Shown here piece after piece: positions 21,104 to 60,052 of a stretch of DNA of 64,000 bases (its first letter is position 1; every line of letters begins with the position of its first letter). Location of the stretch: assembly GCA_002189035.1 (NCBI GenBank), contig CM007990.1, positions 3,968,001 to 4,032,000 of the forward strand. The letters are read 5' to 3'. The notes beneath the pieces are model-generated. The model saw only the letters and a program-made list of their open reading frames with translations. It made no database searches and was not told the origin of the DNA. The position numbers and the translations under genes were made by a program. The stretch is from Utricularia gibba (taxonomy: Eukaryota; Streptophyta; Magnoliopsida; Lamiales; Lentibulariaceae).

Positions 21104-21523
21104 TCATATGGTATTCCAATCATACATCTTTTTGCCTCTCTGAAATGGAGCATGCGCTAAATATATCCCATCATCTGCTGCAAGCCAAATCTGGTAATTT
21201 GGATTGCTGTCCAGGTTCTCATTATAAGCATTAAATTTTTGGGTCTTGTTGCCCCACCATATATGACAAAAGAATTTCGTAGTTGGAATGAAATTCAAGC
21301 AGAACTTCCACTTGAAATAATCATTGAATTTTAGAAGCATATGATATCCAAGATCATCATCTTTCGAAAAACAATGTACCTTCATCGGAATGGCGTCGGA
21401 AGAAACATTTCGATCAACGACCACTGTTATTTTTTCCTCGATAAAGCGAGGTAGACATGCTTCAAGGGGGTTGCATTTTATGAGAAGAAGAAATAATAAA
21501 ATGACAAGAGGAGTAGTGCTCAT
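21104..21523 (-). CDS. S1 self-incompatibility homologue (SPH), copy 1
   Basis: A 139-residue single-exon secreted protein of the plant self-incompatibility S1 family. A hydrophobic signal peptide (VILLFLLLI) ends at CNPLEA, with cleavage likely just before Cys. Core motifs: RNVSSDAIPM with an N-glycosylation sequon NVS, VHCFSKDDDLGYH, FKWKFCLNF, FFCHIWWG, and the C-terminal WLAADDGIYLAH. The mature part keeps four Cys: the one after the leader, HC, FC and the one before HIWWG. The Cys pair usual near the C-terminus of classical S1 proteins is absent. Length and lack of introns fit the family. This member belongs to the NVSSDAIPM clade. Founding family members act in poppy pollen rejection; most homologues have no known role, so no function is assigned. 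Confidence 0.9.
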   Translation of the reverse strand: MSTTPLVILLFLLLIKCNPLEACLPRFIEEKITVVVDRNVSSDAIPMKVHCFSKDDDLGYHMLLKFNDYFKWKFCLNFIPTTKFFCHIWWGNKTQKFNAYNENLDSNPNYQIWLAADDGIYLAHAPFQRGKKMYDWNTI

Positions 21524-21560
21524 GCTTGTGTGGTTTCATTCATTCATGCTCTTGGTGCTC

Positions 21561-21568
21561 TTTTTATA
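21561..21568 (-). promoter_or_regulatory. TATA box of SPH copy 1
   Basis: TATAAAAA on the minus strand, about 40 bases upstream of the ATG, followed by GAGCAC. The same TATAA(A/G)AAGAGCA arrangement precedes most intact genes of the cluster. Confidence 0.6.
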
Positions 21569-22514
21569 AGGGTTGCTTTAATATCAATTGTTTGTTTTTT
21601 TTAATATACGGCTAATGCTAATAATTCTCTTTCACTTTGTTGACTGAAATGGTAAATGGGCAGTTTTTTTTTGAAGTTGACCAAACTTTACCACATTAAT
21701 TAGAATTTGTCATATTGAATCTCTAGTTTAAAGTCACAAGAATGATAAATGGAACAAACCCAAGCAACAAGAATTAAGGAAAACATGAAGTTTGAGTAGG
21801 GAATTGGATGTAATTAGAATCAAATTTGTTTAAGAATCGATAAATTGAAATCGATAATAATAATTCGAGTATAGATAAAAAAAAAATTATACTTCGGATT
21901 TGGGTTTAAATTCTTATAAGCCGTTTATTCGAATAAGAATTGGATATTTTTTATTTTTATATAAATATTTTTTATAATACTAATTATGTAATATATTATA
22001 TATTTATGAACAAATATATATATATTATTTAAAATTGACAATATAAATTTATTATTTATATATCAAAAAATAAAATAAAATTTAGATTTGTGATGATATC
22101 AATATTTGAAATCAGATAAACCGATTAAAAATCGAAATTGATAATTTGCATAAAAACCGATTAATAGAATATTCGATCCAATATCAATAAGAACTGGAAT
22201 TGAACCCAATCTACGAAGATCTCTAAGTTTGAGACTCTAAATATCTATTTTTTTTTCTTATGGCCTATCGAGGGACTAGGTAATTACCAAGCAAATGGCG
22301 TAGTTATGCAAATATAAAACTTGAAGTGGGGATTATGCAACCCTTGTATGAGCATCAATGTCATTCATTTATTTAAAAGAAAAGCTATCGTTATATGACT
22401 ATTCATATGCATGGCTGGAAGCTGGCATGCCGCATGCGGGATAAGACACGAAGATCACATTGCATATATATAAATTTAGTGTGACGGTTTGTATGTCTAG
22501 ATTTGGTATTGAAG
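21569..22514. other. AT-rich spacer between SPH copy 1 and the carboxypeptidase relic
   Basis: The stretch is rich in poly-A/T and in short GATT/AATC words between 21,810 and 22,180. No gene or definable transposon end is seen. Confidence 0.4.
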
Positions 22515-25844: not shown

Positions 25845-26258
25845 TCATGTCTCCCAATCAAACACCTTGTTGTCATCAACATATGGATCACGATGCGACA
25901 GATAGATCCCATCATCCTTTGTTATCCAAACGTTTATTCTGTGGTTGGGAAAGAAATGCTCATGAAATGCCTTAAAAGCCTTGCTCTTATCTCCCCACCA
26001 AATGTGACAAAAGAACTCTGCCATGGGGAAAAGATTCAAGCAGAAATCCCACTTGAGGTAGTCGTGCGATTTTCGAAGCATATGGGTATCAATATCATCA
26101 TCGCCGGAAAAGCAATGCACCTTCATCGGGATCGCATCCGATGACACGTTACGAACGACGAGAACAATGACTTTAGCGTTCAAGAAACACGCCTCAAGAG
26201 GGTTGCATTTCATGAGAAGAAGAAACAGCAAACCGACTAAGGAGTTATTACTGCTCAT
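25845..26258 (-). CDS. S1 self-incompatibility homologue (SPH), copy 2
   Basis: A 137-residue intronless frame. The signal peptide (LVGLLFLLLM) ends at CNPLEAC. The mature part carries VRNVSSDAIPMKVHCFSG, then DDDIDTHML where most copies have DDDLGYH, LKWDFCLNLFP, EFFCHIWWGDKS, and the C-terminal WITKDDGIYLSH. The sequon NVS and the four-Cys pattern match copy 1. A TATA-like TATAAGAACATC lies just upstream near 26,300. It is the most divergent member of the NVSSDAIPM clade in the DDDLG loop. Predicted to be secreted; partner unknown. Confidence 0.9.
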   Translation of the reverse strand: MSSNNSLVGLLFLLLMKCNPLEACFLNAKVIVLVVRNVSSDAIPMKVHCFSGDDDIDTHMLRKSHDYLKWDFCLNLFPMAEFFCHIWWGDKSKAFKAFHEHFFPNHRINVWITKDDGIYLSHRDPYVDDNKVFDWET

Positions 26259-27404
26259 TGTGGTGTGGGAGTGGAACCCCTCAGCTACCTCTTGATGTTC
26301 TTATAGACGTACATTAATTACTTCATACTCACAGATGCTTCAAAATCATGGAGAGTTGCAGAACTTTTTCTCCAAGAAAATAAGGTTTTACTTCAATTTA
26401 CATATAATACAAGATCCTCAGTAGTTCTTTCCACATGCGAATGACATTCAATCAACTCCACTGATATCGAATTTATTTGTTAGAGTGGCTTTTAAATGCA
26501 GCATACCAATGTAGGCTTTTATATTATTTTCGATTGACTATATATGTTTTTTGTCGTATATATTAAGACAAAGAATTAATATTGAAATCAAATATATATA
26601 TATATATATATATAATATTACAAAATTACAAAATGACCAATTTCTAAATGATTACATGTGTGTGTGTGTCTGTCTTGTCTTAAACCCAATCGGGGTGGTC
26701 TTCATTGTTTGTGCATGTATAATTTATGCATAAGTTTCAAAGCATATCACATTTATTTAATAAAATTAATACTTTGTGACATTTATTTTTTATAATAACC
26801 AATAGGGCCATAATTTCAATTTCTCTAAACCATTTTTCATTTGCAATTCGATACAAAAATTATTAACTTATGTGTTCCAAAATTAATATTGAATTAACGT
26901 AATTCATCAAGAAAACCTTATAACATGCACAATCTAAATCTCCATAACGTGCAAACCCAAAATCTTCAAACAAAAAATAAATCATCCGCATCTTCCATAA
27001 TCCATACGTTAATTTCATCAAGATTATCACGATATAAAGATTCAAGACCTTCATTTTCCGCAAATCATTTAAATGGTTTGAACTTCAAAGACATTCATTG
27101 AAAAGACAACTCATAACCCCAAAAGTATGTTAATTCAACAAAATCTTATCCAATTCTAAAGAAACACGGTGTGTAAGAGCATGGGGACTAAAAGACCCAT
27201 GATTTCACTGGTCACGTGGGGTTTTGGGTGTGATTCTCAGCTTTGGAGAATCTTGAGTCGTTACTCATCTTTAATCGCTTAGTTTTAATGTGATCGTCAT
27301 GAATGATTGTCATGACTGGGGAGGGCTATTATTCTAAGTATGGTGAATTATTGTCTTCATTTCTCTACCATCTTATTCATTATAAAACATAGTGATATGA
27401 ATCA
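26259..27404. other. Spacer with AT microsatellite and start of a duplicated block
   Basis: An (AT)n run sits at 26592-26614. From about 26,985 the sequence matches 37,235 onward, marking the left part of the block shared by SPH copies 3 and 4. No gene is seen. Confidence 0.6.
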
Positions 27405-27809
27405 CTACTCCCAATCATACACCTTCTTGGCATCGGAATAAGGATCGTCGTGAGACAAATAGATGCCATCATCTTTTGTCACCCAAACGTTAAGCAAATA
27501 GTTGATTAGAACTTCGTGAAATGCCCTAAACTTCTTTTGCTTCTTTCCCCACCAGACGTTACAGTAGAAACTGGTAACCCCCACGCCGCTCATGCAGAAC
27601 TCCCATTTGAACCCATCGTGCAGTTTCAGAAGCGTGTGAATACCCAAATCGTCATCACCGGAAAAGCAGTGCGCTTGCATCGGGATCGCATCTGAAGAAA
27701 CGTTCCGAACGATGGACACAGTCGCTTTGGAGCTTAGGAAACATGCTTTAAGAGTGCTGCATGTGGTCAGAAGAAATAAGAAGAAGACGAGCAGGGAGTT
27801 GTTGCTCAT
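27405..27809 (-). CDS. S1 self-incompatibility homologue (SPH), copy 3
   Basis: A 134-residue single-exon secreted protein. The signal peptide LLVFFLFLLTTC ends at STLKAC. Motifs are VRNVSSDAIPMQAHCFSG, DDDLGIHTLL, FKWEFCMSG, FYCNVWWGKKQ, WVTKDDGIYLSHDD and the final VYDWE. It differs from the copy at 38150 at only four residues (K/E in the leader, GIH/GTH, HDD/HND, SDA/SNA), so the two arose by a recent duplication that also copied about 2 kb of flanks. TATAAGAGG on the minus strand near 27,855 is the likely TATA box. GVGV replaces the usual (L/F)PTT loop before the third Cys. Confidence 0.92.
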   Translation of the reverse strand: MSNNSLLVFFLFLLTTCSTLKACFLSSKATVSIVRNVSSDAIPMQAHCFSGDDDLGIHTLLKLHDGFKWEFCMSGVGVTSFYCNVWWGKKQKKFRAFHEVLINYLLNVWVTKDDGIYLSHDDPYSDAKKVYDWE

Positions 27810-28372
27810 CGTTTGAGGTTTCCGTTGAGGACTCCGAGCTATCAGGACTCCTCTTATACCTCTTTTGGCTTTCCATTTAATTAAATGGTCTTAACAGATC
27901 CTCGAACTTGGAAAATGTAACCAACAAAAAATTGTTATGCAATTTTTGCAAATGCATGTTCTTTTGATTCCATGTGAAATTTCAGTTTTCTGATTCATCC
28001 CAAAAAACTTCTGAAATCTCTTCAAAATATAATCATTTTGAATGCAAGATGCCTAAACATTTATTTACTTTAAGTGAATTTAATGGCAATTTACATGGAA
28101 AATTTTCATTACTTACATAATATTCACTTTAATCGATTAAATTACTCAATAAGGTAGTCAAATAATTTCTTTTCGACATTTTTTTAATACAGATATGGAT
28201 TGTGTAGTTATACAACATATCTTATAGAAATAATGCTTTATTTTCCAACTTATTCGAATGGAAAAAATGCATCAACTCATCACATATAAATGTAAAATGC
28301 ATTACAATAAACAATTTTGAGGATGCATGTTGAAGAAATTTCGTTGCTTTTTAATATTTGATATGAGTATGT

Positions 28373-29372
28373 TTGTAAGGATATAATTATCATATTTATG
28401 GGGAAATTTGTAAAAATGCCCCCAATAGTTTACACATATGAGCAAAAATGACTCAAAAGTTTACTATGGTACAACTTTACCCCTAAAGTTCATATGCAGA
28501 TGCAATATTGACTCCAAATGTTTGCAAAAGGTTTTAATATGTTACATATCTTTGAGAAATATAGGTGCAAAAATGTTCTAACTTCTGTCAAATTTTTAAA
28601 TGTATATTTTTATCTCAAATATTTCAAAGTGTACACTTTTGCCCCATACTACTTTTTTTTATTATTACTAATATTAATATAATAATAAAAGTAATAATAA
28701 TAATAATTTTATTGTACAAAAACCCGAAACACTATCTGAAATTCTAAACTCTTGATAAACCTTTAAACTCAAACCAAAGTGAAAAAAAAAAAATTTGCAT
28801 CTTACTACGAGTTTTAGTATGATGATAATGATTAAAATCATAAATTGAGATAAAAACATTAATCAAAATGAATGAAAAATGGTTAAGAATTTATTTCATA
28901 GACAACCAAAGATGGTTAACAATTTATCTCATCATCATACTCAAACTCGTGTAATAAGATACAAAATTTATATTTTTTTCTATTTGGTTTAGGTTTAAGG
29001 GTTTTAACAAGACTTTAGATTTTCAGATTTTCGTACAATAAAATTATTATGATTATTAGTTATATTAATAATAAGTAATAACAATAAACCAGAATTGGGC
29101 AAAAGTTCACACTCTTAAATATTTGGGGGTAAAAATACACATTTAAAACTTTGATGGAAGTTAGGACATTTTCGTGTTGTTAAAAATAATTGGGCACAAA
29201 AATATATTTTTCATATATATATGACATATTAAAATGTTTTTGCAAATATTTGGGGTATTGTTACATATGTGTGAACGTTTGGGACAAATTTATGCCACAG
29301 TAAACTTTTGGGATAAAAAAACTTGTGTGTGTAAATAGTTGGTGATAAAAATAAACTTGATCTGATATTTAT
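28373..29372. mobile_element. 1-kb fold-back element with near full-length inverted arms
   Basis: The left arm (from about 28,399, with CAATAGTTTACACATATGAG, AAAAGTTTACTATGG and ATGTTTGCAAAAGG) recurs inverted on the right, down to about 29,345. Similarity continues inward through CTAACTTCTGTCAAA/TGATGGAAGTTAGGAC and the AATTTTATTGTAC/GTACAATAAAATT words towards a centre near 28,880. The paralogous block at 39,060-39,075 runs directly from GATATGAGTATGT into GCTTTTTT and lacks the whole element, so the borders are set by an empty site. It has no coding capacity. A non-autonomous Mutator-like or fold-back element is likely. Confidence 0.85.
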
Positions 29373-31235
29373 GTGCTTTTTTTTAGCATAATCCTAAATT
29401 TAGAGAAAATATTATGCAACCAACAAAATAGGGAGGTTTCCATATTTTATAAGGATCCTGACCCTAAAAAACAATTTCAAGAACTCTCTTATAGTTTTAG
29501 GACTCAACAATATTAGCCTTGGGCATGAGTACGAGTTAACTCCAGTAACTCATGAGTTTGTGGAATGAGTGACTTCTAATCATAATCATAGGAGGTAAAT
29601 CAACCAATTCTCAAATGTTACTCATGAATGAATTCAATTCTGATTTTATACTTTCTTTTCATTTCTTGGAATTTAATAAAGATATTGCCTCATCATAAAT
29701 TCTTGTCACAAACAGTTTTCAAAATTCTTCTTCATTTTCCTATCTTCTCAAATGGATTTAAAATCACAACAAGTGACCATAGATGATTTTCAAATAGTAA
29801 GAATAAATCATTGTTGTTTGAGAATCAATTATATCATGTTGATTGCCGTTTCTACAATAATTTTTTTTTAAAAAAAATTAAAATGTAAAACAAAAAGGGT
29901 GTAACTGAATATCGATCACATGGAGTTAATTTTTAAGAGAATGATGCAGTTTAAAACCTAATATAAACTATCACGATTTTGTAAATGAGATTATAAAGGT
30001 AAACAGAAAAAACAAATTTAAATGATGAATCTTAAGCAAGATTACTGTTGGATTGGAATCCTTACCAATTATCATTATAACTCTATCCCTCTTCGGTTTT
30101 TTTGGGGTATATGAACACAAATCACCTATGCTCTCTTATACTCTCTTATAAGAAAACATGAGAATTGTCTCATGTAGCACCTTTTTGGATGATCGTAAAG
30201 ATAAGAGATCCAAACATCAATTATCTTCATGATCGAATTGGCCATATGCGTCCAAGTGTTGCCAATGGTTCTATTGTGGTTGGATACACTCACAAACAAA
30301 ACGTTCTCTCCTTCGAACTGAAAAGGTAGGAGTTGGTGTCTTTCAGCTTGTTCATTTTGAAAACTTGTAAGTAGCAACGAATTACTCATGAATTTTGACT
30401 AGAGATCATTATACTGCAATGCATGTACATTGAAATATGTGAAAGCCGATTGAATTCAGAGAGAAAATGCATAATTAATCATACGATATAGAAGAAGTCT
30501 GTTAACCCAGAAAAGAGAAGTTTAGTTGCAAGCGGTCAAACACAATATGAAACTCAAAGCAAACTAGAGAAAAAAATGGAGAAAAACATTTTAGAGAAAT
30601 GTGAATTACAAAAACTAAAACACCAAATATTATCCTTATCTAAATATTGAAAATACATATTTCGAAGGGGATCTTATTTTTTGGTAGTATTGTCACGTTT
30701 TTCAACCAGTTATCATGCATATTCTCCAATAATGCACTTCAATTCAATTATACTAATATAAGAAAAAACTTATAATTCTTATTCTAGACATCAAATTATA
30801 CTACTCTAATTTCATTTAAACATACACTATGACACAAAATATGATATTAAAATAACAATTAGCATGTCACTTGGAAAACTAGTGGAAATTATGTAACTAA
30901 TTTTTTTAGGTGATCTCCATAGCCAACCAGATAAGAATTGCAGTGTATTTTCAATTTTTTAAATACATTATGAAGAATGATTTGAATTTAAAAATTATAA
31001 GCATAATCATATTTTAAAAAAAGTATTTGCGATGTATATAAATGTGATATAAAATTATTAGTAATTATGTTACATATATGATTTTCATTTTTTTGTGAAT
31101 GGTGTAATTTTTCCACTTAATCACATTCAATTTGAAAACCAAATTTAATATAGGCATAGTATCAAAGTTTCAATATTATTTAACGAATCAAGCACTCACC
31201 AACCATATTGTTAGTGGATGTGACAATTTCTTCTG
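29373..31235. other. AT-rich spacer with an old repeat-B remnant
   Basis: The right flank of the copy-3 block runs to about 29,460. About 30,060-30,700 resembles 48,850-49,560 and, more distantly, repeat B near 62,900-63,300 (shared words around AGTGTTGCCAATG, GTAGGAGTTGGTG). From about 30,945 the sequence aligns with 41,365 and 49,785 and leads into SPH copy 5. No gene is seen. Confidence 0.5.
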
Positions 31236-31667
31236 TCAAATACCAACATTATAAGGTGGTGTATTTTCATTCCAACCATATTGCCATGCTGGAGAATCAT
31301 CACCATACCATAAGTAGATTCCATCATCTTTTGCTTCCCAGAAGAATCTTAAAGGAGCAACACCCATATCTTCCTTAAATGCGTTGAAAATAACACTCTT
31401 CTTTCCCCACCATATATGACAAATGAATTTCGTAGTAGGAAGAAAATTTACGCAAAATTTCCAACTAACATAGCTACGAAACACAGGGAGTTGGTGGTAT
31501 CCAAGATTGCCATCTTTTGAAAAGCAATGCACCCTCATCATCGTCGAATCCGAAGACACCATACGAGTAATGGAGATGATTTCCTCCTCAGTAAAGATAC
31601 ATGCTTGAATGGGGCTGCATATTGCAATAAGAACAAATAAGAGTATGGTTGGGAGACCGTTGCCCAT
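31236..31667 (-). CDS. S1 self-incompatibility homologue (SPH), copy 5
   Basis: A 143-residue intronless frame from the ATG at 31667 (MGNGLPTILL). The frame stays open upstream for 31 codons, but the TATA element lies inside that extension, so the downstream Met is preferred. The signal peptide ends at CSPIQAC. Core: TRMVSSDSTMMRVHCFSKDG, NLGYHQLPVF, VSWKFCVNFLPTT, FICHIWWGKKS, FFWEAKDDGIYLW, and a Trp/Tyr-rich C-terminus WNENTPPYNVGI. It represents the second clade (MVSSDSTMM), which lacks the NVS sequon. The DDDLG loop reads DGNLG here. It forms a block with pseudogene copy 6 and an upstream minisatellite, repeated at 42-44 kb. Confidence 0.9.
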   Translation of the reverse strand: MGNGLPTILLFVLIAICSPIQACIFTEEEIISITRMVSSDSTMMRVHCFSKDGNLGYHQLPVFRSYVSWKFCVNFLPTTKFICHIWWGKKSVIFNAFKEDMGVAPLRFFWEAKDDGIYLWYGDDSPAWQYGWNENTPPYNVGI

Positions 31668-31704
31668 TGTGTTGAGGTGTCCATTGAGGTTTTCAGGAGA
31701 TGCT

Positions 31705-31713
31705 CTTCTTATA
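31705..31713 (-). promoter_or_regulatory. TATA box of SPH copy 5
   Basis: TATAAGAAG on the minus strand followed by AGCATC, about 40 bases before the chosen ATG. The same element occurs at 52753-52761 before the paralogue. Confidence 0.6.
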
Positions 31714-32159
31714 GGAGTCTTACAAATCAAGTTGGCAATTGCTAACTTGACAACTTCCATAAGTTAGCACATTTTATAGGTAATTTGAGAGAATTAGGTC
31801 TCAATTCAAATTAAAGGTGCAATTGTATTAAGTTAAATTTATCCAAATCCTATAAAAAAAACCAACCTAAATCATCAAATTAAACTAATGAAATGAATAC
31901 AAAGAGTGAAATGTAATAATAATAGAAAAAATAGTTAATAATACAATTTCATTCTTAACTTATGAACATCAGAATTACCTAATAATATTTGCGGCTATAA
32001 GAGTTGAGTTCACATTAATTTTAAACTGAAAAAGAAAAGAATTCATATTTTATCAATTTCAAGACAAGATTTTTTTTTGAATTATTTAAACTAAAAAAAG
32101 GATTCATACTGATTTATAGATGAAATATGAGTCAACAATGAAGCCATATTAAATATGAA

Positions 32160-32440
32160 TTTATACAAGGACATATTTATTAAATAGATGTGATTTGGGT
32201 TATTATGAATGTATACAAGGGTATATTTATTAAATGGATGTGAATTTTGGTTATTATGAATATATACAAAGGTAAATTTATTAAATAGATGTGAATTTTG
32301 GTTATTCTAAATAGATATAAAGGTAAATTTATTAAATAGATGTGAATTTTGATTATTATAAATTAGCATCAAGGAAAATTATTTGAAACTTGATTATTAT
32401 GAATCTAGACAAGGGAAAATTTATTAAATATAAGTGAAAT
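32160..32440. repeat. 50-bp minisatellite, about five to six units
   Basis: Units carry TTTATTAAATAGATGTGAAT, TTTGGTTATTATGAAT and TACAAGGGTA in order, with a 50-base period and unit-to-unit drift. The array lies about 500 bases upstream of SPH copy 5. The same unit forms arrays upstream of the paralogues at 42,284 and 52,284. Confidence 0.85.
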
Positions 32441-32955
32441 TTGGTATTATGTAATTTGAAAATGTACATAAAGTTGGGGATTCGAAAGATCGGATAGGTT
32501 TCGGTTGCACTAAGCCTGAAACTAAACAGCTTTACAATACCCAAAATTTCAAACTTAAACTCAAATTTTAGCAATATTTTGTACACAATTTCATTTTTTT
32601 ATATATAAAATTAATAATTTTTTAGAATACTGATTTCTCGGATGAAGAAAAATCAAATTCCCATTTTTTAAAATAACACTAAAATGAATAAATCATAATG
32701 TTAATTCTTGTTTGTTCTAATTTTAACAAAAATTTTTTTTAATAATGTTTCTGTTATTTTTTCTTTTCTATGTTAATTCTTTTTTTTTCCTTTTTATTAG
32801 TGTTAGCTTATACGATTCTAGGTAATAAAATAATGATGGCATTTCTTACGAAAATAATTCAAAATGAGATTTGCGCAAACATGGGGCAAGGTCATGGTAG
32901 TATATGACATTGAAAATGTATACTATTAAATAATTTAATGGACTTATACTCTATG

Positions 32956-33175
32956 AGTGTGTTTGGTAGAGAGGATAAAGGGGGATAGTTAAATGGAAAA
33001 AGAAAAATAGTATGTTTAGTAGATGAGATAAATTATACTTAATATAATTTATACCATGAATATGAAATAAAATAATGGAAGGAGAGGGATTGAGATAAAA
33101 TTATATTATCATATACCCCTCCTTTATATACCAACTCTTATTTCTGGTATAATTTATCTATGTACCAAATACAAT
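32956..33175. mobile_element. 220-bp MITE with TTTGGTA inverted ends
   Basis: It begins AGTGTGTTTGGTAGAGAG and ends ATGTACCAAATACAAT, an imperfect inverted repeat. CTATG flanks both sides (32951-32955, 33176-33180). The paralogous block near 43,790-43,815 has ACTTATACTCTATG only once and no element, giving an empty site. Confidence 0.8.
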
Positions 33176-33249
33176 CTATGTTCTCTGTAAGTATGCAAGG
33201 GGTATAAACATAAATTAGTAGCAATTATTAAGAACATACATTATTTGAT

Positions 33250-33668
33250 CAAAATATAATATTATAAGGTGGTATACCTTCATTCCAACCATATGCTCTC
33301 AATAAGGCATCATTACCATGTCCTAAATAAAACTCGTAATCTTTAACTTCTCAATAGTCTTTGAAAGGAGTCATTTTAATACTCTTGATGTGAATTAAAC
33401 TTAAGACTCTTCTTTCCCCACCAAAAATGATGAAAAAGCTTGAAAAAAAGTTGAAACAAAAAGTTCGACTATAAGTAATATGCAATATTGGGAGTAGGTG
33501 ATATCCAAGGTCATTATCCTTGGAAAATCAGTACACCCTCATCACTGTTGAATTCAATGAAAACTTACAAAAGACTGCAACATATTGCTCTTCAGTCACA
33601 CAAGCTTTATTAGGGTTGTGTAGTGCAAGAAGAACAACTAGGAAGATGGGTATGAGATTGTTGCTCAT
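33250..33668 (-). pseudogene. SPH pseudogene, copy 6
   Basis: It starts like an intact gene (MSNNLIPIFLVVLLAL, leader ending KACVTEEQY) and reads on to LNSTVMRVY, where the codon for the conserved Cys of the HC motif is TGA. Downstream pieces remain recognisable: FSKDNDLGYHLLPIL, then a damaged HIWWG region, then a second TGA in place of the Trp of the W-x-x-K-D-D-G motif, and a preserved tail YGWNEGIPPYNI. A TATA-like TATAAGAAG is still present near 33,705-33,713. The TGA at the Trp is shared with copy 8. Confidence 0.85.
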
Positions 33669-35138
33669 TGCATTATGGTCTGTATTCATGATTTTAGCCA
33701 ATGCTCTTCTTATAAGAGTTTGGTAAACCAAAAAAATGAGTAATCTCTTTCTCTCTAGAAGCAATAAACTAAAGTAGGTATTTACCATTCAATGGTTTTG
33801 AGTCATTTTCAATTGATTTGAACAATGAACATGTATTACATGGATCTTTGAGAAGTGGCAATTTATGTTTTTTTGCTGACACACTAAAGTTGTAAATTAA
33901 TATTTATATTACTTTTTGCACACATATGTTAGAAAACTACTTTCTAAATAACCATACATTTTACAAGCATAGATATTACTAACATTAAACCCCAAATGAG
34001 GGTGTGCACTTAGTCCCTTCATGAGGCAAATAGTCAACTTAAAATAATGGGGAAAGCATTAAAATAGAGGGAATCATTGTTGTAATTTTTTATGAATATC
34101 GGAGACCATTAACATCAAATACCCAATGTATTATATAAAAATTATGTGTTTCAAATTTAATATTGAATTAACATAATTCATCATGACTATGGAAAAACAA
34201 ACCATTTCCAATATATAGAATAGAAAAATTTAGTTATTACCATAAAGTCCAACTATGAAAAATTAATGTGATTTACAAATAATATGATAATAGTACTGTC
34301 TAAATAAATCAAACTTCAATATTTTGATTAGATATACAAATAAAAAATTTCATATGTTATGAATACTCGAAGTAAATATTAAATAAAATTATGAGTTATA
34401 GTTATTCAGGTAACATCAAATAGGAAACATGATGTTTTGAATTTAGATATCAAATGGGGATCTCAAATCGGAATAGCATACAATTATCTTTATAACCCGA
34501 TATAATCCATCGCTTATTTTGTGCTAGGAAGTGCTGAGAAAATCCTCAACAATCTGATGTTATTAGTGAAGAAGAAGAAAAAACCTAAAAAGAAAGCATG
34601 GAATAGAAATAGGAACTCAATTTGAACTATGGCCATTTAAATATAGATTTGATTCAAAGAAAATTCAATATGAAGAAAAGATTCAGGAGCAGAATTCTAG
34701 CTTACAACCAAGACACTGGCAAAAAACCCACAATTTTAAACTCTCAATGAGAATATAACAGTTGTATAGCTTTATTATATACAAATAGGAGAAACATACA
34801 TGCAGATCTGTAGATTAAAAATTATTTTTCTCCATAAAATTATTTTTGGAGGATAAAACTTCAAGTTCATAAGGTTCAATGTCCAGGCTCCAAGATAGGA
34901 ATGTATAATCTTAAATCAGTTCATTTTGTTGGTAGGTTGGGGCGATCACGGCAGCCCAGGTCCAAAATAAAATTTTTTTTTTTTTAATTTTGCATATGTA
35001 TTTTTTTATGTTTTTAATATTATGGTGCAAATTATCAACAAAATAGTACTAATATATCTTTCAATTAACCAAACAATATATCAAATAAGTTGTATCATAA
35101 GTCTATTAAGATTAAATGAGAAATAACATCATTGTTGT
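33669..35138. other. AT-rich block flank, no gene seen
   Basis: At 33,965-34,030 the words ACATTAAACCCCAAATGAGG and GTGCACTTAG recur at about 41,645 and 44,590, marking the border of a duplicated block. The rest is AT-rich without a recognised feature. Confidence 0.5.
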
Positions 35139-38149: not shown

Positions 38150-38554
38150 CTACTCCCAATCATACACCTTTTTGGCATTGGAATAAGGATCGTTGTGAGA
38201 CAAATAGATGCCATCATCTTTTGTCACCCAAACGTTAAGCAAATAGTTGATTAGAACTTCGTGAAATGCCCTAAACTTCTTTTGCTTCTTTCCCCACCAG
38301 ACGTTACAGTAGAAACTGGTAACCCCCACGCCGCTCATGCAGAACTCCCATTTGAACCCATCGTGCAGTTTCAGAAGCGTGTGAGTCCCCAAATCGTCAT
38401 CACCGGAAAAGCAGTGCGCTTGCATCGGGATCGCATCTGAAGAAACGTTCCGAACGATGGACACAGTCGCTTTGGAGCTTAAGAAACATGCTTCAAGAGT
38501 GCTGCATGTTGTCAGAAGAAATAAGAAGAAGACGAGCAGGGAGTTGTTGCTCAT
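38150..38554 (-). CDS. S1 self-incompatibility homologue (SPH), copy 4 (sister of copy 3)
   Basis: A 134-residue protein starting MSNNSLLVFF. The frame is open 29 codons further upstream, but those codons fall in the promoter region shared with copy 3, and there copy 3 does not keep them open, so the internal Met is chosen. The leader ends STLEAC. Motifs are VRNVSSDAIPMQAHCFSG, DDDLGTHTLL, FKWEFCMSG, FYCNVWWGKKQ and WVTKDDGIYLSHND. It is almost identical to copy 3 and keeps its GVGV loop, sequon and four Cys. Both promoters carry TATAAGAGGAGTC. The pair indicates a recent tandem-type duplication over more than 10 kb. Confidence 0.92.
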   Translation of the reverse strand: MSNNSLLVFFLFLLTTCSTLEACFLSSKATVSIVRNVSSDAIPMQAHCFSGDDDLGTHTLLKLHDGFKWEFCMSGVGVTSFYCNVWWGKKQKKFRAFHEVLINYLLNVWVTKDDGIYLSHNDPYSNAKKVYDWE

Positions 38555-42715: not shown

Positions 42716-42750
42716 TATGCTGAAATTGTATTGAAGGTTTAGGGGATGCT

Positions 42751-42760
42751 CTTTTTATAG
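42751..42760 (-). promoter_or_regulatory. TATA box of SPH copy 7
   Basis: CTATAAAAAG on the minus strand followed by AGCATC, about 40 bases upstream of the ATG. Confidence 0.6.
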
Positions 42761-43375: not shown

Positions 43376-43862
43376 TTCAAAAATTGGATTGGTTTGGATT
43401 GCACTAAGCCTGAAATAACTAAAAAAGTTTATAATACCCACAATTTTTCAATTTAAACTGAAATATTAGCTATATTTTACACATATTTTTCATTTTTAAA
43501 TAATTCATGATGTTAATTCTTGCTTCTTTTTTTTCTTTTCTATTTTAGTTCATTTTTTTCCATTTTCTTATTTTTGGCTTCTTATATTCTAGATAATAAT
43601 GATGGCATTTTTATAAAAACACTCCCAAATGAGATTTGTGCAAACATGGGGCAAGGTCATGGTAGTAAATGATATTGAAAATTTATATTAATAAATAATT
43701 AAATTTTCCTTCATTAGATATGTATTTTATTACTTTATTAAAATAAAAATTGATACTTTATGTTATTTTAAATTTTTAAATGACTTATACTCTATGCTTT
43801 ATATAAATATACAATAGGTAAACATAAATTAGTAGCAATTATTAAGAACATGCATTATTGGA
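43376..43862. other. Spacer equivalent to 32,450-33,249, without the MITE
   Basis: Aligns with the copy-5/6 spacer but has an empty site where the 220-bp MITE sits in that block. No gene is seen. Confidence 0.55.
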
Positions 43863-44288
43863 TTAAAATACAATATCATAAGGTGATACATTTTTATTTC
43901 AACCATATGTTGTCAATGGGGTATCATTACCTTTTACTAAATAAAATCTATCATCTCTAACTTCTCAATAGTTTTTCAAATGAGTTATTTTCATACACCC
44001 TTATATGTATTAAACTTATGACTCTTCGTTCCGCACCACAAATGATAAAAGGAACTTATAGTAGAAAAAAAGTTAAGACAAAAAGTCCAACTATAAGTAA
44101 TATGGAATACCGGGAGCAGATGATATCCAAGATCATCATCTTTGGCAAAATGCACACCTGCATCATTGTTGAATTCGATGAAACCATATGAGTAATCGCA
44201 ACATATTGTTCCGTGGTCACAGAAGTTTGAACAAGGTTTCACATTGCAAGAAAAACAATGAGCAATAAGGTATGAGATTGTCATTCAT
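43863..44288 (-). pseudogene. SPH pseudogene, copy 8
   Basis: Relic of a second-clade SPH gene and sister of copy 6. The ATG and the leader (NDNLIPYC...) are present but out of frame with the body. The body reads KDDDLGYHLLPVF, YSWTFCLNFF, a damaged HLWCGTKS in place of HIWWG, and the segment before the C-terminal motif has TGA for Trp, as in copy 6, followed by EVRDD. The HC motif has lost its Cys. The TATA element (TATAAAAAGAG near 44,330) is still visible. Confidence 0.85.
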
Positions 44289-44750
44289 GGCATTAAGGTA
44301 TGTATTGAGGATTGTAAAAGATACTCTTTTTATAAGAGCTTGGTAAATTAAAAAATGAGTATCTCTTTCTTTTTAAGAAAGCAATAAACTATAAAGTGGG
44401 TATCACCATTCAATGGTTTCGAGTCATTTTCATTAATTTGAACAATGAGTTTGTAATACATAGATTTTTGAAAAGTGACAATTTATACTTTTTTTGTTCA
44501 CACATTAAAGTTACAATTAATATTGATAGTACTTACTTTTTACATGTATATGTTAGAATATTACTATATAAATAATCATATATTTTACAAGTATGCATAT
44601 TACTTATATTAAACCCCAAATGAGGGTGTCACTTAGCCTGTGAATGGGACAATGATCAAATTAAAACGATTTGATTCAGCCTAGTTTAACTAAATTAATT
44701 TTGTAAACGTTTATACATAAAATTTGTATCTCATTTCTAGCAATCATTAT
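44289..44750. other. Upstream flank of copy 8
   Basis: Resembles 33,690-34,060, including the ACCCCAAATGAGG border words near 44,610. Nothing else is recognised. Confidence 0.45.
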
Positions 44751-46338: not shown

Positions 46339-47505
46339 TAATAAATGAAAAATTTATGCAACGTCATTTGAATTGCAAATTTCTCTTATCAAATAAAATT
46401 TATAAACCTAATTCACATCAAATCATATGAAAAATATGAGTATAGTGGACTAAGGTTAAACACAAGTACTTAGGTGCTTACTATGTGAAAGTCAATGTAT
46501 TCAATCAATGTCACATCGATAGATTTGATCTTAATTAGGACTAAGTCAAAGTTGCGGTAAAATACAATAAGAAAAAGTAACAAACTTCTGAACTCGGTTA
46601 TTTCTAAGGTGAAATGGGTGATGTTTTGGGACTTCTAGAGTATGTATGCTTATCACTAAACACGCTCATACAAACCATAAATCAAACAACTAACAAACAA
46701 AGTATAGGTCTACTCGAACTCTTGTTTTTTGCCTAATCTTTGGTCTACCTCTAATTTGGATAGTTAAGATGGGTTTCACTATTTTCCTCTCCTGGATCTA
46801 TCCTGGTTTTTAAGGAAGTGGCGTGATTTATGATTGATTAAGTCTAAAGATTGATTAGTACATTTCTCCTCTTTTCACCCCCAAGGAACCCTTAAATAAT
46901 TAGCCACTCATAACAAGAGAAAGGAAGACACTTTCATAACCTAGAAACCAGAACATGTTCATGTCATTGTGCAACAATGAGAAAGAAACATAAACAAAGA
47001 CAGAAGATGGTAAACGGTTAATGCAGAAAGCTAAAGCTATTCCTAATTAGGAATAGTATTCCTGATAAACGAAAAGTTTAAGTGTAGTTGAAATCTTCTT
47101 CTTTGTCCTCCATGGTTCTTTTGCGACTTTCCCCCAGAAAACCTTCTACAGAAAGCTGTCTCGTGTGTTCCCAATGGGGAGATCTTTTTCTCTCTTCATC
47201 TTGTCCCCTTTTTGTCCAAAATATCAATTTTTTCTCTTCCTTGGATTTTGTGTGTATTCCTTTTCAGACTTCTGCCTCATCCTCTGCCACTACACTGTTC
47301 ATATCCGACTCTTTGGAATTTGTATTGCAACATATGCTGCATTGTTCAAAGAAAACTATTAGAGGTTGGGATTAAATTTAAGACTAAAAAAACACAACTA
47401 CGATAATATTCGCAAAAATATAAAAGCAGGCAATAAAACTTAATTTTTGCAGCATAATATGAGTAATTTTCATATATTAAATCACTCAAAAAATATCTGT
47501 TATCA
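46339..47505 (+). mobile_element. Repeat D, copy 1, with GGTAT target duplication
   Basis: The element runs from TAATAAATGAAAAATTT to CTGTTATCA and is flanked on both sides by GGTAT (46334-46338, 47506-47510). The sister block near 54,270 has the target once and no element. It is 1167 bp long with no gag or pol, and CT-rich with several short unrelated frames in the 47,090-47,400 part. The ends resemble repeat C (TGATAAAC...TTATCA), so it is best read as a solo LTR of a related family. Confidence 0.8.
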
Positions 47506-48017
47506 GGTATATTATAGGTTTTAACAAAACTGCTTATTTGAAATTCAATTAAGAAAACTTGCCTAACCTAGGATAAAAAATTGGTACAACTGTTTTAGTT
47601 AAATAGTTAGACAATTCAGAGTTTAGACAATGAAGTTTGTAGAGCTTTTGCCGTTAAAATTTTTCTATTAAACCAATTAGTAGATTAACTTGAATCTATC
47701 AACATAGTTCAATTAACTCGCACCATTATTATGCATTCATAGTAAGGTTTTGTTTGTAGAGTTTCATTCGACTTCTAACTCCATCTTCTGTAGAATCTCT
47801 CGGTCAAGATACTATACCAGCTCCCACGTTTTCTCTTCTCTGGTACCATTCTCATTAGCCTAACCATGTAAATATTACAATATAATGCATTTAGAACAAT
47901 TTGACAAAAAATATGGAAATATGTTTCTTGTGACAAGAAGAAATCGATATACGCTCATTGTGTGAGTTAATAAAAATTGCTTAAAACTCTTAAATTGTAA
48001 AGAAAGGCTTTAAATTG
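47506..48017. other. Block flank, paralogous to 54,270-55,060
   Basis: Shares TTTTAACAAAACT and ATTTCATTCGACTTCT words in order with the flank of SPH copy 11. No gene is seen before the SPH fragment. Confidence 0.5.
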
Positions 48018-48195
48018 TTTTTTCGAAAGACGATGATCTTTGATATCACTCTCTCCGAGTTGTACACTATGTTGCTTGGAGATTTTGTGTGATTTTTTTC
48101 CCTACAACAAGTTTCTTTTGTCATATATGGTGGGGAAAGAAGAGTATCAAGTTCAATGCATATCAAGATCATTTTTAGTGTGGTCCTTTCTTGTT
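48018..48195 (+). pseudogene. SPH fragment, copy 10
   Basis: Plus-strand remnant of the middle of a second-clade SPH gene: FSKDDDL, a TGA where copy 12 has Gly, YHSLRVV, AWRFCVIFFPTT, FFCHIWWGKKS and FNAYQDHF, followed by a TAG. The leader and C-terminus are missing. It is closest to copies 11 and 12, which lie in the same orientation further right. Confidence 0.85.
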
Positions 48196-49838
48196 CAGAT
48201 TCACATGTGAAAACAGTAAGAAAATATAAAGAAAGCCAGTTTAGGAAAGGCAGACATTGGATCAAGATTAACGTTCAAGCTGGAATATATATGAATCAGG
48301 GTTGTGATTTGTAGGGTTTTAATGTTTAGGGTTTTTTAGAAGGTGCCGATCAATGTAATTGTTCAATTACATTGATTATACATCTTTATACAATTCATGC
48401 TAATACATGTACATTGCAATTTCATGTACTAGTTTTTCTACTTCTTTTTCAAAGTTATCTATTTAGCATTATTGGGAATTAAAATTTATTTCAATATATC
48501 ACATATTCATTGTTAATTTTTTAATTAAAGGTAATAAAATATATCACATATTCATTATTTTCAAATGTATAAGCGAAATGAAAAGATATGTTTTGAAACT
48601 TGAGGAAATAATTTAGTTAATACTTTAATTTTTCAAAATTGAATTAATACTTTAAAATTAAGAATTAATTTCAGGGGGTGGAGATTTCTAATAACAAAAT
48701 TATAAAAAATTTAGAATAATTGTTATTTGTATGTAAAACAAATTACTATAATAACTGTATTTTAATGCATGATATGAAAATGAACCTCTTTATAAAATGT
48801 ATTACTACTCTCTTTTATTTCTGCGACTTGGGCCTATTGTTAAACCTTCTCAACTGAGCTTATCTTTACAACCTAATTACGCATGTGGGTTCAAGTGTTG
48901 CTAATGATCTAATGGTGCAAATACGAGGTCATTATATGTCCATTGTGATAAGATACAATCACGAATAAAATATTATCTCCCTCAAATCAAAAGAGTAGGA
49001 GTTGGTGTTTTTTATCTTACTCCTTACAAACTCGTAAGCAGTGACTAGCTAGCTACTCATGAATCTAGATTAAAAGTCATTAGAAAAGACTGTAACCTAT
49101 GCATGAGGAAATGTGTTAAACCAAATCGATTTCAAAGAGAAAATATAGAATAAGTCTCCTAATCGAAAAATGAGAAGTTTAGCAGCAAACAGCCAAACAT
49201 AAAAGCAAACTGGAGAAAAGTTGAACAAAAATATTTTAGATAAATGTGAATTACAAAAAGTAAAACTCTAAACAGTAATTTCTCCTTGTTTTTTCCTTAA
49301 ATTTTATTAGTAATTTTGTGTGACTTGTAAGAAAATCTTATGCTACTATAACACTACAATGCAATTATCATTCCTTTTCTCACATACAATTGTGTTTCTC
49401 ACGTTAAGTCTGATTATCAATATTTTGTTTTCTTATGGAAAGACGTCTTTTGAAGGTGTTCCTATCTTTCATGTAGTTGCCACATTTTTCAGCCATCTAT
49501 CACGTATATTCACCAATCATACACTTAAAGTCAATTAAATTTTTCATAAAAAGAGATAAGATAAAATATAAAAATAAAGATAATTATACTAGAAAAACTT
49601 ATAACTCTTAGTCTAGACTTCAAATTATATTATTCTAATTTTATTTAGATATACACTATGACACAAAATATGATATTAAAATAAAAATTAGATGTTATTT
49701 GGAAAAATATTGGAAATTATGTATGTAAATTTTTTAGGTGATATCTATCGCCATCCAAATAAGATATGCAGTACCCATATATTTTCAATTTTTTAAAGAC
49801 ATTTCGAATGATTCAAATTTAAAAATTATAAGCATAAT
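48196..49838. other. Spacer with palindrome and old repeat-B remnant
   Basis: Two TTTAGGG-like words lie at about 48,312-48,335. About 48,850-49,560 resembles 30,060-30,700 and repeat B. From 49,780 it aligns with the flank of SPH copy 5 and is then interrupted by repeat A. The frame 49320-49538 shows no domain. Confidence 0.45.
48349..48376. repeat. Perfect 13-bp-arm palindrome
   Basis: ATCAATGTAATTG is followed by TT and its exact reverse complement. It would form a hairpin with a two-base loop. Role unknown. Confidence 0.8.
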
Positions 49839-52715: not shown

Positions 52716-53159
52716 TATGTTGAGTTGTGCGCTGAGGGTTTTAGGGGATGTTCTTCTTATAGGAGTCAATCAACTTTGCAATTATTGATTTGAACAATTT
52801 TCATAAATTACCACAAGTTATAGGTAATTTTAGAGAATTAGGTCTCAATTCCATAATGAGTTATGTACCAAGGGTTCAATTGAATTAAGTTAGTTTTATC
52901 CAAATTCGAATTCAATCTACTGAAATCAATAAAATAAACTAATGAAATGAACACAAAAAGCGAAATGTAATAATGATAGAAAATTGTTAATAATATAATT
53001 TCCTTCGCAACATATCAAATATCAAAATTATTAATAATATTTGCAGCTATAAGAGTTGAGTTCACATTAATTTAAACTTAAAAAATATATATTTTATTAT
53101 TTTTTTCAAATTATTTAGGCTGAAATATGAGTCAACTATGAAGACGTATTACACAAGAA

Positions 53160-53265: not shown

Positions 53266-54913
53266 TTTTTTCTTTTATTTATATTCATCATCCAATCTAT
53301 TTTTGTTTTTGTCTATAATTATTTTTTTGTTTATAGAAGTTATTGCTCTGCCATTTGCATTGATGCTCTTCTTTTTTATTTGTCATGTGATGTAATTCTC
53401 ATGCTGCCTCTACAAATCAGGATCCATAGAGGCTAAAGTGTAACACTTTGCCTTGTTGTCATCAGCCTCAGCTCTATCAGTTTCATTCATATTTATCACA
53501 TAAACAAGGTATGGACAATGCAATAGATAGAATTATTCTTACTCTACATCTCCTCAAGTAGCTGATGTATAGTCTAGATGAATTTGCAAAGACAATGTAC
53601 TTTCATCATATAATAGTACTTCTTATGTTATCTAGTTTTGAATTCATGTGCTTGATATGTAAAGTTTTCCTGTGAATTATTGTGGATGGATGTTCCAGTG
53701 GTAGGTGTTTATCATTTTATATATAATTTACTAATGAATAACAAGAAAAATAACATCCTAAAACTATCGTTAATAGAACCACATCAATCAAGAACGACTA
53801 CAAATGGTTTGATAGCGTATTAGATGATTTAATTAATTGTACACTGATTTTCAAGAAAGACGAACACCCTTTTGAATTATGTAGTTTACATGATATGAGG
53901 AAGATAGTGGAGCATATACAAAACAAGATGATAAATTTTAAAGAATAATTGTGTGATTTATTTTATTATATTTATTTATTTTTGATGAATGTATCAAATA
54001 TTTGAAATCAAAAAATATTACACTCATTTATTGATAATGTTTGTTTATAACTGATGTATGCTCACCAATTTTTTCACACATATGCTCATTATACTTTCAA
54101 ATAATTTCATATGAATCACATTTAGGTTAATAAAAATAAATCATTAAATATAATAAAAATACATATGAAAATTAACTACATACAAGCAAAACAAAGTAAA
54201 CTACATGCATATTTGAAATAGCGAACCTCATTATTATCTTGAAACATACAAGACTTCATTTTAATATTTGGTATATTTTAGGTTTTAACAAAACTCTTTA
54301 TATGAAATTTAATCAAGAAACCTATCTAGCCCTAGGGCGAAAAATTAGTGGGTTAAATAGTTAGACAGTAATAGTTTAGACAATTAAGTTTTTGTAGAGA
54401 GTTCTGGGCTTTCTGTGATTCTAAGTTTTTCATTAAAGCAATCAGTTGCTTAACTTGAATCCATCAAACTACTTTGTTTAACTCGCACCCATTAATATGC
54501 GTTTATAGTTAGATTTTGTTTGAAGAATTTCATTCGACTTCTCACTTGTATCTTCTGCAGAATCTCTCACCAAGTTACCATACTAGCTCCTACGATTTTT
54601 CTCATGTGCCATTCTTATTAGCCTACCTGTGTAAATATTAGAGTAAAATGCATTTATAACAATGTTATTACGAAAAATTATGGAGATGTGCTTCTTATGA
54701 CAAAAGGAAATCGATATAAGCTCATTATGTGAGTTAATAAAAATTACTCAAAACTCTTGAATTGTAAAAAAAACATTTTAATGCTTTTCTACAACATGAG
54801 ATTTGGTTATGTAGATTTTTTTGCGTATACATTCATGAAAACACTCCAATGTGATTTATAAAACTATTATAACAAGAGCATATGCTAAAGCTCTCATTGC
54901 CAATCTCAAAACA
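53266..54913. other. Block flank between copies 9 and 11
   Basis: 53,560-54,270 matches 45,410-46,330 and 54,270-54,900 matches 47,506-48,000. The frame 53239-53436 has no domain. No gene is seen. Confidence 0.5.
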
Positions 54914-58380: not shown

Positions 58381-58676
58381 ATCTGACCAAAACATCTCTT
58401 CCAAAGCCTATCACAATAACTATGCATCTTCATATTCAATGATCTATGAGATAAACAGTTATTTATATACAAGTTCATAATAACTAATGATCTATACCAC
58501 TTCGAGGAATATAGGGACTTGAGAAGCTTATGAATCTATGAGAAGCATATGCACTAGCCTAAAGGAATACAGGGACTCGAGAAACTTCTAAATTTGAGAA
58601 GAAAATGTACTTGGGAAGTATTACTATAAAGTCCAACTATCCTTTATTATTTCTCGTATTGGACAAGTATTGTTAA

Positions 58677-59276
58677 TCCCCTTTGCCCTAAGGCACCACT
58701 AGGTGATTAGCTATTCATGATAAGGAAAAGTAAAATACTTTCATAACAAGCATCATTCTGATTTCAAAGTTCAACAACAACAAAAGACACATAACATAAA
58801 CATAAACTATAAATAGTTCACACGAAAAAGATAAAACTACTCCCAACTAGGAGTAATGTCTTCATAAGCCAAAAAAGTCTTCAAAAGTGAGATTGATTCC
58901 TGGTTCTTCTTCTTCATTTTTTCTTGTAAGGTTTTCTCTAGATCTCCTCTCCAAAAATTTGTGACGTGTTGTTCGAAGTCCTGGAGATATTTTCTCTCCC
59001 TCATTATATCCAAAATTCATCTTTTTATCTCTTTGGATTTTGGTGCACTTCCTTTCAATTTTCGTCCACATCTTCTGCAACTTCATTGTTCTCTTTCGGC
59101 TCTTTGAGATTTGGACTGCTAAAACATACTACATTGAGCAAGAGAGTGATTAGAATTAAGATTGAGACTAAATCATGGATTTAATACCAACTAGGAATAA
59201 AAGACACAAACGGTGGTGCTAGTAAAATATTAGTCATTTTTCTATCCTTAAATACTCAAAAATATTTTTTTTATCA
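58677..59276 (+). mobile_element. Repeat D, copy 3, left end missing
   Basis: Matches the right half of repeat D (GGCACCACTAGGTGATTAGC, CTCCCAACTAGGAGTA) and ends TTATCA at 59276, after which the sequence matches the 54,576 flank of SPH copy 11. The left half is absent, so this is also the join of two duplicated blocks. Confidence 0.7.
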
Positions 59277-59614
59277 ATCACCATACTAGCTCCTGCAATT
59301 TTTCTAATGCATCATTCTTGTTAGCCCACTTGTATTAATACTAGAGTAAAATGCATTTATAACAATGTTATTAAGAAAAATTATGGAAATGTACTTTTTA
59401 TGACAAAAAGAAATCTATAGTATGCTCATTTTGTGAGTTAATAAAAATTGCTCAAACTTTTGAATTGTAAAAAAAACCTTTTAATGCTTTTCTACAGTAT
59501 GAGATTCGATTATATAGATTTTTTGGGTATACATTCATGAAAATATTCCAATGTGATTTATGAAACTACTATAACAAGAGCATCTGTAAAGCCCTCATTG
59601 CCAATCTCAACACA

Positions 59615-60052
59615 ATGAGGAAAAATAATTTTCTTGTCATCATGCTGCTTGCTGTTCTAATGGTATGCAATCCTCTTCAAGCTTGTATAACCGATGAAGT
59701 TTACATTGATATTATATGCATGGTGACCTCAAATTCAACCATGATGATAGTACATTGCTTTTCAAAAGATGATGATCTTGGATACCACCATCTCTCCCAG
59801 TTGTATGATATGTTTGATGGGAAATTTTGTGTGAACTTTTTCCCTACAACGAGTTTCTTTTGTCATATATGGTGGGGAAAGAAGAGTATTGGGTTCAATG
59901 CATATCAGGAGCACTTTCAGTATGATCCTTTGGAATATCATTGGAGAGTTAAAGATGATGGAATATATTTTAGACATGAAGGCAAAGATATCCTAAGAAA
60001 GATGTATGGTTGGAATGAAAATGTACCACCTTATCTTAATAGTGTTTTTTAA
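59615..60052 (+). CDS. S1 self-incompatibility homologue (SPH), copy 12
   Basis: The only intact plus-strand member: 145 residues, no intron. The signal peptide FLVIMLLAVLMV ends at CNPLQAC. Core: CMVTSNSTMMIVHCFSKDDD with sequon NST, LGYHHLSQL, FDGKFCVNFFPTT, FFCHIWWGKKS, HWRVKDDGIYF, and the tail YGWNENVPPY. It has one extra Cys (IICMV) compared with copies 5, 7 and 9, giving five in the mature part. The TATA-like TATAACAAGAGCA near 59,570 is weaker than the TATAAAAAG of the other genes. It is the surviving sister of split copy 11, with which it shares upstream and downstream flanks including a copia remnant. Confidence 0.9.
   Translation: MRKNNFLVIMLLAVLMVCNPLQACITDEVYIDIICMVTSNSTMMIVHCFSKDDDLGYHHLSQLYDMFDGKFCVNFFPTTSFFCHIWWGKKSIGFNAYQEHFQYDPLEYHWRVKDDGIYFRHEGKDILRKMYGWNENVPPYLNSVF

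What the first reader, a model, noticed from the sequence alone, without database searches (positions are those of the whole stretch)
21104..60052. A 39-kb cluster of S1/SPH secreted-protein genes: eight intact, four broken, two interleaved clades
Twelve copies are readable. Copies 1-4 share NVSSDAIPM with an N-glycosylation site; the others share MVSSDSTMM or MVTSNSTMM with a YGWNE-x-x-PPY tail. The order along the DNA is clade 1 (21, 25, 27 kb), clade 2 (31, 33), clade 1 (38), clade 2 (42-60). All keep the CNPL(E/Q)AC leader end and four Cys but lack the C-terminal Cys pair of classical S1 proteins. Clusters of small secreted proteins with fast turnover often underlie recognition traits; that link is inference.
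Basis: partly seen in the sequence, partly recalled or inferred. Interest (0 to 1): 0.75.

Follow-up and report, generated by a model that had tools for sequence, protein, structure and literature searches.

The report
Bladderwort cluster of secreted S1-type proteins
In what is almost certainly the humped bladderwort, one stretch of chromosome holds fourteen copies of a gene for a small secreted protein related to a poppy mating protein, whereas the sister stretch left by an old genome doubling holds just one; such clusters are known in other plants, but this pair shows the genes being gained and lost.

Summary
The window contains exactly twelve S1/SPH (PF05938) loci, eight intact and four broken, in two lineages. 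The cluster is larger than reported: two more intact copies lie just beyond the window, so it spans about 54 kb with fourteen loci. The genome is very probably Utricularia gibba (100 Mb; COX1 with the Utricularia Cys-Cys motif).

New facts. (1) The flanking genes RH3 and GH9 have a colinear duplicate on contig C451, where 3.2 kb with one S1 gene replaces 62 kb with fourteen. (2) The interleaving comes from duplication of an ~11 kb block that carried an already broken copy. (3) The copies share a core promoter, TATAARAAGAGCA, 44-50 bases before ATG; its 17-base form occurs three times in the genome, always before one of these genes. (4) Intact frames have no indels while their flanks have many. 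(5) The predicted fold is that of SPH15; the C-terminal Cys pair, present in the genome's other S1 cluster, is missing.

Best reading: a birth-and-death array of secreted SPH ligands. Self-incompatibility is unlikely, because the species sets seed in closed selfing flowers. Expression and function are untested. SPH arrays are known elsewhere, so this is a new member of a known kind.

The parts
21104..21523 (-). S1/SPH copy w21, intact, 139 aa, 'clade 1'
   Evidence: PF05938 83.8 bits; ORF
25845..26258 (-). S1/SPH copy w25, intact, 137 aa, 'clade 1'
   Evidence: PF05938 67.3 bits
27405..27809 (-). S1/SPH copy w27, intact, 134 aa, 'clade 1'; block-duplicate partner of w38
   Evidence: PF05938 66.0 bits; dS 0.05 to w38
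31236..31667 (-). S1/SPH copy w31, intact, 143 aa from the conserved ATG, clade 2
   Evidence: PF05938 69.6 bits
33258..33668 (-). S1/SPH copy b33, broken, clade 2: in-frame stops and deletions, a 2-base deletion and a TGA shared with b44
   Evidence: tblastn; alignment
38150..38554 (-). S1/SPH copy w38, intact, 134 aa, 'clade 1'
   Evidence: PF05938 67.2 bits
42284..42715 (-). S1/SPH copy w42, intact, 143 aa, clade 2; modelled
   Evidence: PF05938 81.6 bits; model
43872..44271 (-). S1/SPH copy b44, broken, clade 2, block duplicate of b33
   Evidence: tblastn
47978..48217 (+). S1/SPH copy b48, broken remnant: 5' part missing and stops
   Evidence: tblastn; profile 61.7 bits
52284..52715 (-). 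S1/SPH copy w52, intact, 143 aa, clade 2
   Evidence: PF05938 78.3 bits
54914..56483 (+). S1/SPH copy b55, broken, clade 2: stops plus a ~1.1 kb insertion (about 55273-56396) before its last part
   Evidence: tblastn; blastn to w59 block; junctions
59615..60052 (+). S1/SPH copy w59, intact, 145 aa, clade 2, fifth mature Cys
   Evidence: PF05938 73.2 bits
21554..21569 (-). core promoter element of w21 (TTATAAAAAGAGCACC)
31699..31714 (-). core promoter element of w31 (CTATAAGAAGAGCATC)
   Evidence: genome-wide uniqueness
33700..33715 (-). core promoter element of broken b33
42745..42760 (-). core promoter element of w42 (CTATAAAAAGAGCATC)
44320..44335 (-). core promoter element of broken b44
52747..52762 (-). 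core promoter element of w52
54867..54882 (+). core promoter element of broken b55
59569..59584 (+). core promoter element of w59
26971..34044 (.). block holding w27, w31 and b33, duplicated as 37226-44666 (w38, w42, b44)
   Evidence: five colinear blastn matches at offset 10.2-11.0 kb, 76-87% identity
37226..44666 (.). second copy of that block
11493..15347 (+). left flank: RH3-like DEAD-box helicase, duplicated on C451
   Evidence: DEAD 112.9 bits; 77-79% DNA match to C451

Best explanation
This is a birth-and-death tandem array of S1/SPH genes of (very probably) the bladderwort Utricularia gibba. Each intact gene is intronless, most have the same short TATA promoter, and each encodes a protein of ~13-15 kDa with a secretion leader and a beta-sandwich fold, held, by inference, by two disulfides. 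The array grows by duplication of multi-gene blocks, presumably through unequal exchange, which also spreads dead copies. After the last genome doubling one side kept and enlarged the array while the other shrank to one gene. Most likely the proteins act outside the cell as ligands for a surface receptor, as PrsS does in poppy, in a reproductive or other cell-to-cell setting rather than in self-incompatibility. Shown: sequence family, predicted fold, array structure, shared promoter element, retention of reading frames. Inferred: secretion, disulfides, transcription, ligand role.
For: PF05938 match of all eight; only 34 exon-level matches in the genome. Predicted nine-strand model, pLDDT 75, pTM 0.70, with SPH15 (6g7g) as best match at Z 11.6 over 107 residues, ahead of the next at 8.6; Foldseek TM 0.68-0.71; a sequence profile also finds SPH15. 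Hydrophobic leader in every intact copy. Block duplication with five colinear matches and a frameshift plus stop common to b33 and b44, so that gene was dead before it was copied. Colinear duplicate RH3 - one S1 - GH9 on C451, dS 0.41 and 0.50. No indel in the frames of w31/w42/w52 and w27/w38 against 2-13 in their flanks. Promoter element in 12 of 13 C2 copies that could be scored, ten matches in the window against 2.65 expected, the 17-base form three times in 100 Mb, all here.
Against: No expression evidence was available. The model rests on eight related sequences and has only moderate confidence. Recent-pair dN/dS of 0.5-1.0 (mature part) would also fit weak constraint and decay. Four of fourteen copies are dead, so the array may be eroding. 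Signal peptides were judged by hydrophobicity only. No receptor was looked for.
Confidence: 0.7

Rival explanations
1. A self-incompatibility locus of the poppy type: the copies are stigma S-determinants that recognise self pollen.
For: Same protein family and fold as PrsS; PrsS triggers pollen death in Papaver (PMC13033167).
Against: U. gibba has fertile closed flowers that self (PMC4350169). A tandem array of paralogues is not a single multi-allelic locus. The C-terminal Cys pair is missing.
Confidence: 0.03
2. Trap or defence proteins: secreted into the bladder or the apoplast, where diversity is driven by microbes or prey.
For: Carnivory genes such as cysteine proteases and chitinases are enriched among U. 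gibba tandem duplicates (PMC6982007); fast turnover fits. The fold resembles domain 4 of cholesterol-dependent cytolysins, Z about 8-8.6, a likeness already noted for SPH15 (PMC13033167).
Against: The likeness in fold shows no function, and no paper found ties SPH genes to traps. Arabidopsis SPHs are reported mainly from floral tissues and the pollen coat (PMC9856046).
Confidence: 0.2
3. A decaying array with little or no function left: copies are made by unequal exchange and drift to death.
For: Four dead copies; dN/dS of w31-w42 and w31-w52 near 1 in the mature part; transposon remnants on both sides.
Against: Zero indels in intact frames against many in flanks, P 0.02 or below for each pair; older pairs have dN/dS of about 0.13-0.45; promoter element kept at a fixed distance.
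Confidence: 0.12
4. The interleaving of lineages and the high identity of w27 and w38 come from gene conversion rather than block duplication.
For: w27 and w38 differ at 2% in the frame and 11.7% in the flanks.
Against: At four-fold sites the difference from the flanks is not significant (2/52 against 64/548, p 0.10), so selection on the protein may suffice. Five colinear matches and the shared disablements of b33/b44 show a block duplication.
Confidence: 0.1

Closest known systems
Turnera subulata TsSPH1 and its tandem paralogues; Passiflora organensis SPH array (PMC9862265)
   Same: Neighbouring tandem SPH paralogues that expanded separately in each species
   Different: Here 14 loci with four dead, interleaved lineages, and a genome-doubling partner with one copy for comparison; no distyly link known
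Papaver PrsS, stigma S-determinant (PMC13033167, PMC3166141)
   Same: Small secreted protein of the same Pfam family and predicted fold
   Different: PrsS is a multi-allelic SI ligand with four conserved Cys; here the C-terminal pair is absent, the genes are paralogues, the species selfs
Arabidopsis SPH15, PDB 6g7g
   Same: Beta-sandwich; Z 11.6
   Different: 19-20% identity; the aligned part of SPH15 has no Cys at the position of C93 of my alignment
The genome's own C505 cluster, 1.837-1.854 Mb
   Same: Same family, intronless, tandem; shares Cys 39, 68, 93, 104
   Different: Six Cys including the C-terminal pair; mostly head-to-tail at ~1.3 kb spacing; different TATA element
SPHs of the Arabidopsis and Brassica pollen coat (PMC9856046) and SIPS, an SPH acting in interspecific pollen-pistil signalling (cited in PMC13033167)
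   Same: Family membership; candidate model for function
   Different: No expression known here

Membership tests
S1/SPH family (PF05938) at large | PF05938 domain over the curated cut-off | tested here: met
   66-84 bits for all eight intact copies, cut-off 24
S1/SPH family (PF05938) at large | Short precursor with N-terminal secretion signal | tested here: inconclusive
   134-151 aa with a strongly hydrophobic 10-residue core in each intact copy; no signal-peptide predictor available
S1/SPH family (PF05938) at large | Beta-sandwich fold of SPH15 | tested here: met
   Nine-strand prediction, Z 11.6 to 6g7g, TM 0.68-0.71
S1/SPH family (PF05938) at large | Single-exon gene | tested here: met
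   Complete uninterrupted ORFs from ATG to stop
Classical SPH with the C-terminal Cys pair (as in C505) | Two Cys in the C-terminal third (alignment columns 129, 135) | tested here: not met
   Absent in all intact C2 copies and u451; present in all eleven aligned C505 genes and C402
Papaver-type SI S-determinant | Multi-allelic single locus with linked pollen receptor PrpS | not testable with these tools
   One assembly, no PrpS model searched
Papaver-type SI S-determinant | Self-incompatible species | not testable with these tools
   Literature only: fertile selfing cleistogamous flowers in U. gibba (PMC4350169)
Papaver-type SI S-determinant | Stigma-specific expression | not testable with these tools
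   No RNA data on hand

The most novel reading that the evidence does not exclude
A bladderwort SPH subclass that has dropped the C-terminal disulfide, has a private core promoter, and is diversifying under selection as a set of extracellular recognition ligands unrelated to self-incompatibility.
Probability: 0.25. Interest if true: 0.6.

Novelty: new member of a known kind. Interest (0 to 1): 0.4.

Why it matters
Little is known of what SPH proteins do outside poppy. This locus offers a within-genome natural comparison: the same neighbourhood was doubled once and now holds fourteen S1 loci on one side and one on the other. Expression of the array and of the single gene in the same plant would show what expansion bought. 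The shared promoter element gives a handle for finding where the array is switched on.

Tried and rejected
phmmer of one copy against the PDB found nothing up to E 10; only the 22-row profile found SPH15. A search of the genome with the alignment was not possible. Gene conversion between w27 and w38 was considered and not shown. Positive selection was considered and not shown. The idea that the whole array arose after the genome doubling was considered: the AU test cannot place u451 (p 0.34), but dS between the main lineages (above 1) exceeds that of the flanking pair (0.41-0.50), so the lineages are probably older. Literature searches for SPH genes in Utricularia traps gave nothing. The PNAS paper on the long-read U. 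gibba genome is not held. A first dS estimate for RH3/GH9 counted overlapping frames and was redone. The second structure job was not used, because the rule for that tool does not list loci from the fetch from genomes.

Full report
What was checked. The window is G000:C2:3968001-4032000 of a 100.09 Mb assembly in 516 contigs. The mitochondrial contig C515 carries a COX1 whose helix 3 region reads LLLLCCSALVEV. Adjacent Cys at 113-114 is the motif described for Utricularia, and U. gibba has a ~101 Mb genome (both PMC5516982), so the plant is very probably U. gibba.

The observation. PF05938 hits every intact copy far above its cut-off. A filter-free profile scan of 84 kb finds twelve S1 loci in the window, two beyond, and nothing else above chance. 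The two outside copies (72.9 kb on + and 74.5-74.9 kb on - in window-extended coordinates, loci L001 and L002) are intact, so the cluster is ~54 kb long. Genome-wide there are 34 exon-level matches: this cluster, a second tandem cluster on C505 and a handful of single genes.

Cysteines. In an alignment of intact genes, Cys at columns 39, 68, 93 and 104 are common to this cluster and to the C505 cluster, while the pair at 129 and 135 is present in C505 and C402 and missing here and in the C451 gene. Columns 39 and 93 are kept or lost together in the intact genes aligned, as is the C-terminal pair, which suggests the pairs 39-93, 129-135 and by exclusion 68-104 (inference). This cluster would then have lost one whole disulfide.

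Fold. A model of the mature 42 kb copy from the eight window sequences has pLDDT 75 and pTM 0.70 with nine strands. Its best solved match is SPH15 (6g7g): Z 11.6 over 107 residues at 2.8 A and TM 0.68-0.71. The next matches are domain 4 of cholesterol-dependent cytolysins at Z about 8-8.6, a likeness already reported for SPH15 (PMC13033167) that shows no function.

How the cluster grew. Self-comparison shows that 27.0-34.0 kb (w27, w31, b33) recurs at 37.2-44.7 kb (w38, w42, b44) in five colinear pieces at an offset of 10.2-11.0 kb and 76-87% identity. b33 and b44 share a 2-base deletion and a TGA in place of Trp, so that gene was already dead when it was copied. This explains the interleaving of lineages: blocks moved, not single genes. 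w52 and w59/b55 belong to further block copies. In the tree, clade 2 is supported (99/97).

The duplicated neighbourhood. The left flank is an RH3-like DEAD-box helicase and the right flank, beyond the window, a GH9 gene. Both have 93-94% copies on C451 at 198 and 205.5 kb. The two regions are colinear: RH3, then one S1 gene on the minus strand, then GH9. Between RH3 and GH9 there are 3.2 kb on C451 and 62.4 kb here. dS is 0.41 for RH3 and 0.50 for GH9, which dates the doubling relative to the S1 genes. w27/w38 (dS 0.05) and w31/w42/w52 (0.15-0.23) are younger. w59 against that trio (0.75-1.0), the other lineages (above 1, often saturated) and the C451 gene against all (1.6 or more) are older. 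So the array already had several lineages before the doubling, the C451 side lost all but one, the counterpart of that one was lost here, and this side kept duplicating. This assumes comparable synonymous rates.

Are the copies under selection? Frames of the recent intact pairs contain no indel, while their flanks contain 2 to 13; the chance of none in the frame is 0.02 or below for each pair. Mature dN/dS of the trio is 1.03, 0.82 and 0.48 with 95% intervals of 0.49-3.08, 0.39-2.03 and 0.25-1.01. Frames are held, but amino acids change freely. Older pairs have dN/dS of about 0.13-0.45.

Promoter. Twelve of the thirteen C2 copies that could be scored carry a TATA element related to TATAARAAGAGCA, at -44 to -50 in eleven and at -34 in b44 (whose start is uncertain); x74 lacks it and the C451 gene has a variant. 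Matches range from 0 to 3 mismatches; in random pieces, 2 mismatches occur in 0.9% and 3 in 8%, so w27 and w38 (3 mismatches) rest on position rather than score. In the window the 16-base form has ten matches against 2.65 expected, eight of them before S1 copies. The 17-base form occurs three times in the genome, all upstream of w21, w31 and w42, and its reversed control never. The C505 genes have other TATA elements. This suggests that the copies are, or until lately were, transcribed.

Function. Known SPH roles are floral: poppy SI, SPHs in the pollen coat (PMC9856046), filament length in Turnera as likely (PMC9862265) and SIPS in interspecific pollen signalling (PMC13033167). U. gibba makes fertile closed flowers that self (PMC4350169), so SI is unlikely. 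I commit to secreted ligands with a role in reproduction or another cell-to-cell setting; trap or defence use is the main rival. Neither was testable here.

Novelty. SPH arrays with species-specific clades are described in Turnera and Passiflora (PMC9862265). What is new here is this array, its four-Cys type, its private promoter and the contrast with its doubled partner. Whether four-Cys SPHs occur in related plants was not testable with the collections on hand.

Noticed in passing
G000:C505:1837260-1854182 (L003, L004): Second tandem S1 cluster, ~17 kb, about 14 loci with eleven intact, almost all on one strand, with six Cys including the C-terminal pair; the locus at 1837717 is a truncated near-copy of the gene at 1844571.
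   Followed up: partly
G000:C515:185171-185854 (L012): Mitochondrial COX1 with adjacent Cys in helix 3 and an intron bearing a LAGLIDADG-type frame, matching descriptions of Utricularia.
   Followed up: yes
window 28454-29310: Self-complementary stretch of ~860 bases at 69% identity, perhaps a foldback element inside the duplicated block.
   Followed up: no
window 42900-43371 and 32154-32363: 51/145-base tandem repeats at matching places upstream of w42 and w31, longer in the first.
   Followed up: no
window 55273-56396: ~1.1 kb insertion in broken copy b55; part of it (55906-56402) recurs inverted at 46337-46838.
   Followed up: partly
window 18.9-19.3 kb; L001 4164-4781; L002 9368-9736: Remnants of a MULE transposase, a Plant_tran (Harbinger-like) transposase and a gag-pre-integrase around the cluster (the last two lie beyond the window).
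   Followed up: no
window 59615-60052: Copy w59, like broken b55 and b33, has an extra Cys (IICMV or VFCKF), giving w59 an odd number of mature Cys that could allow a disulfide between chains.
   Followed up: no
L008 (G000:C317:1484645): Single S1 gene that also lacks the C-terminal Cys pair but is very divergent; its relation to this cluster is unsure (long branch).
   Followed up: partly
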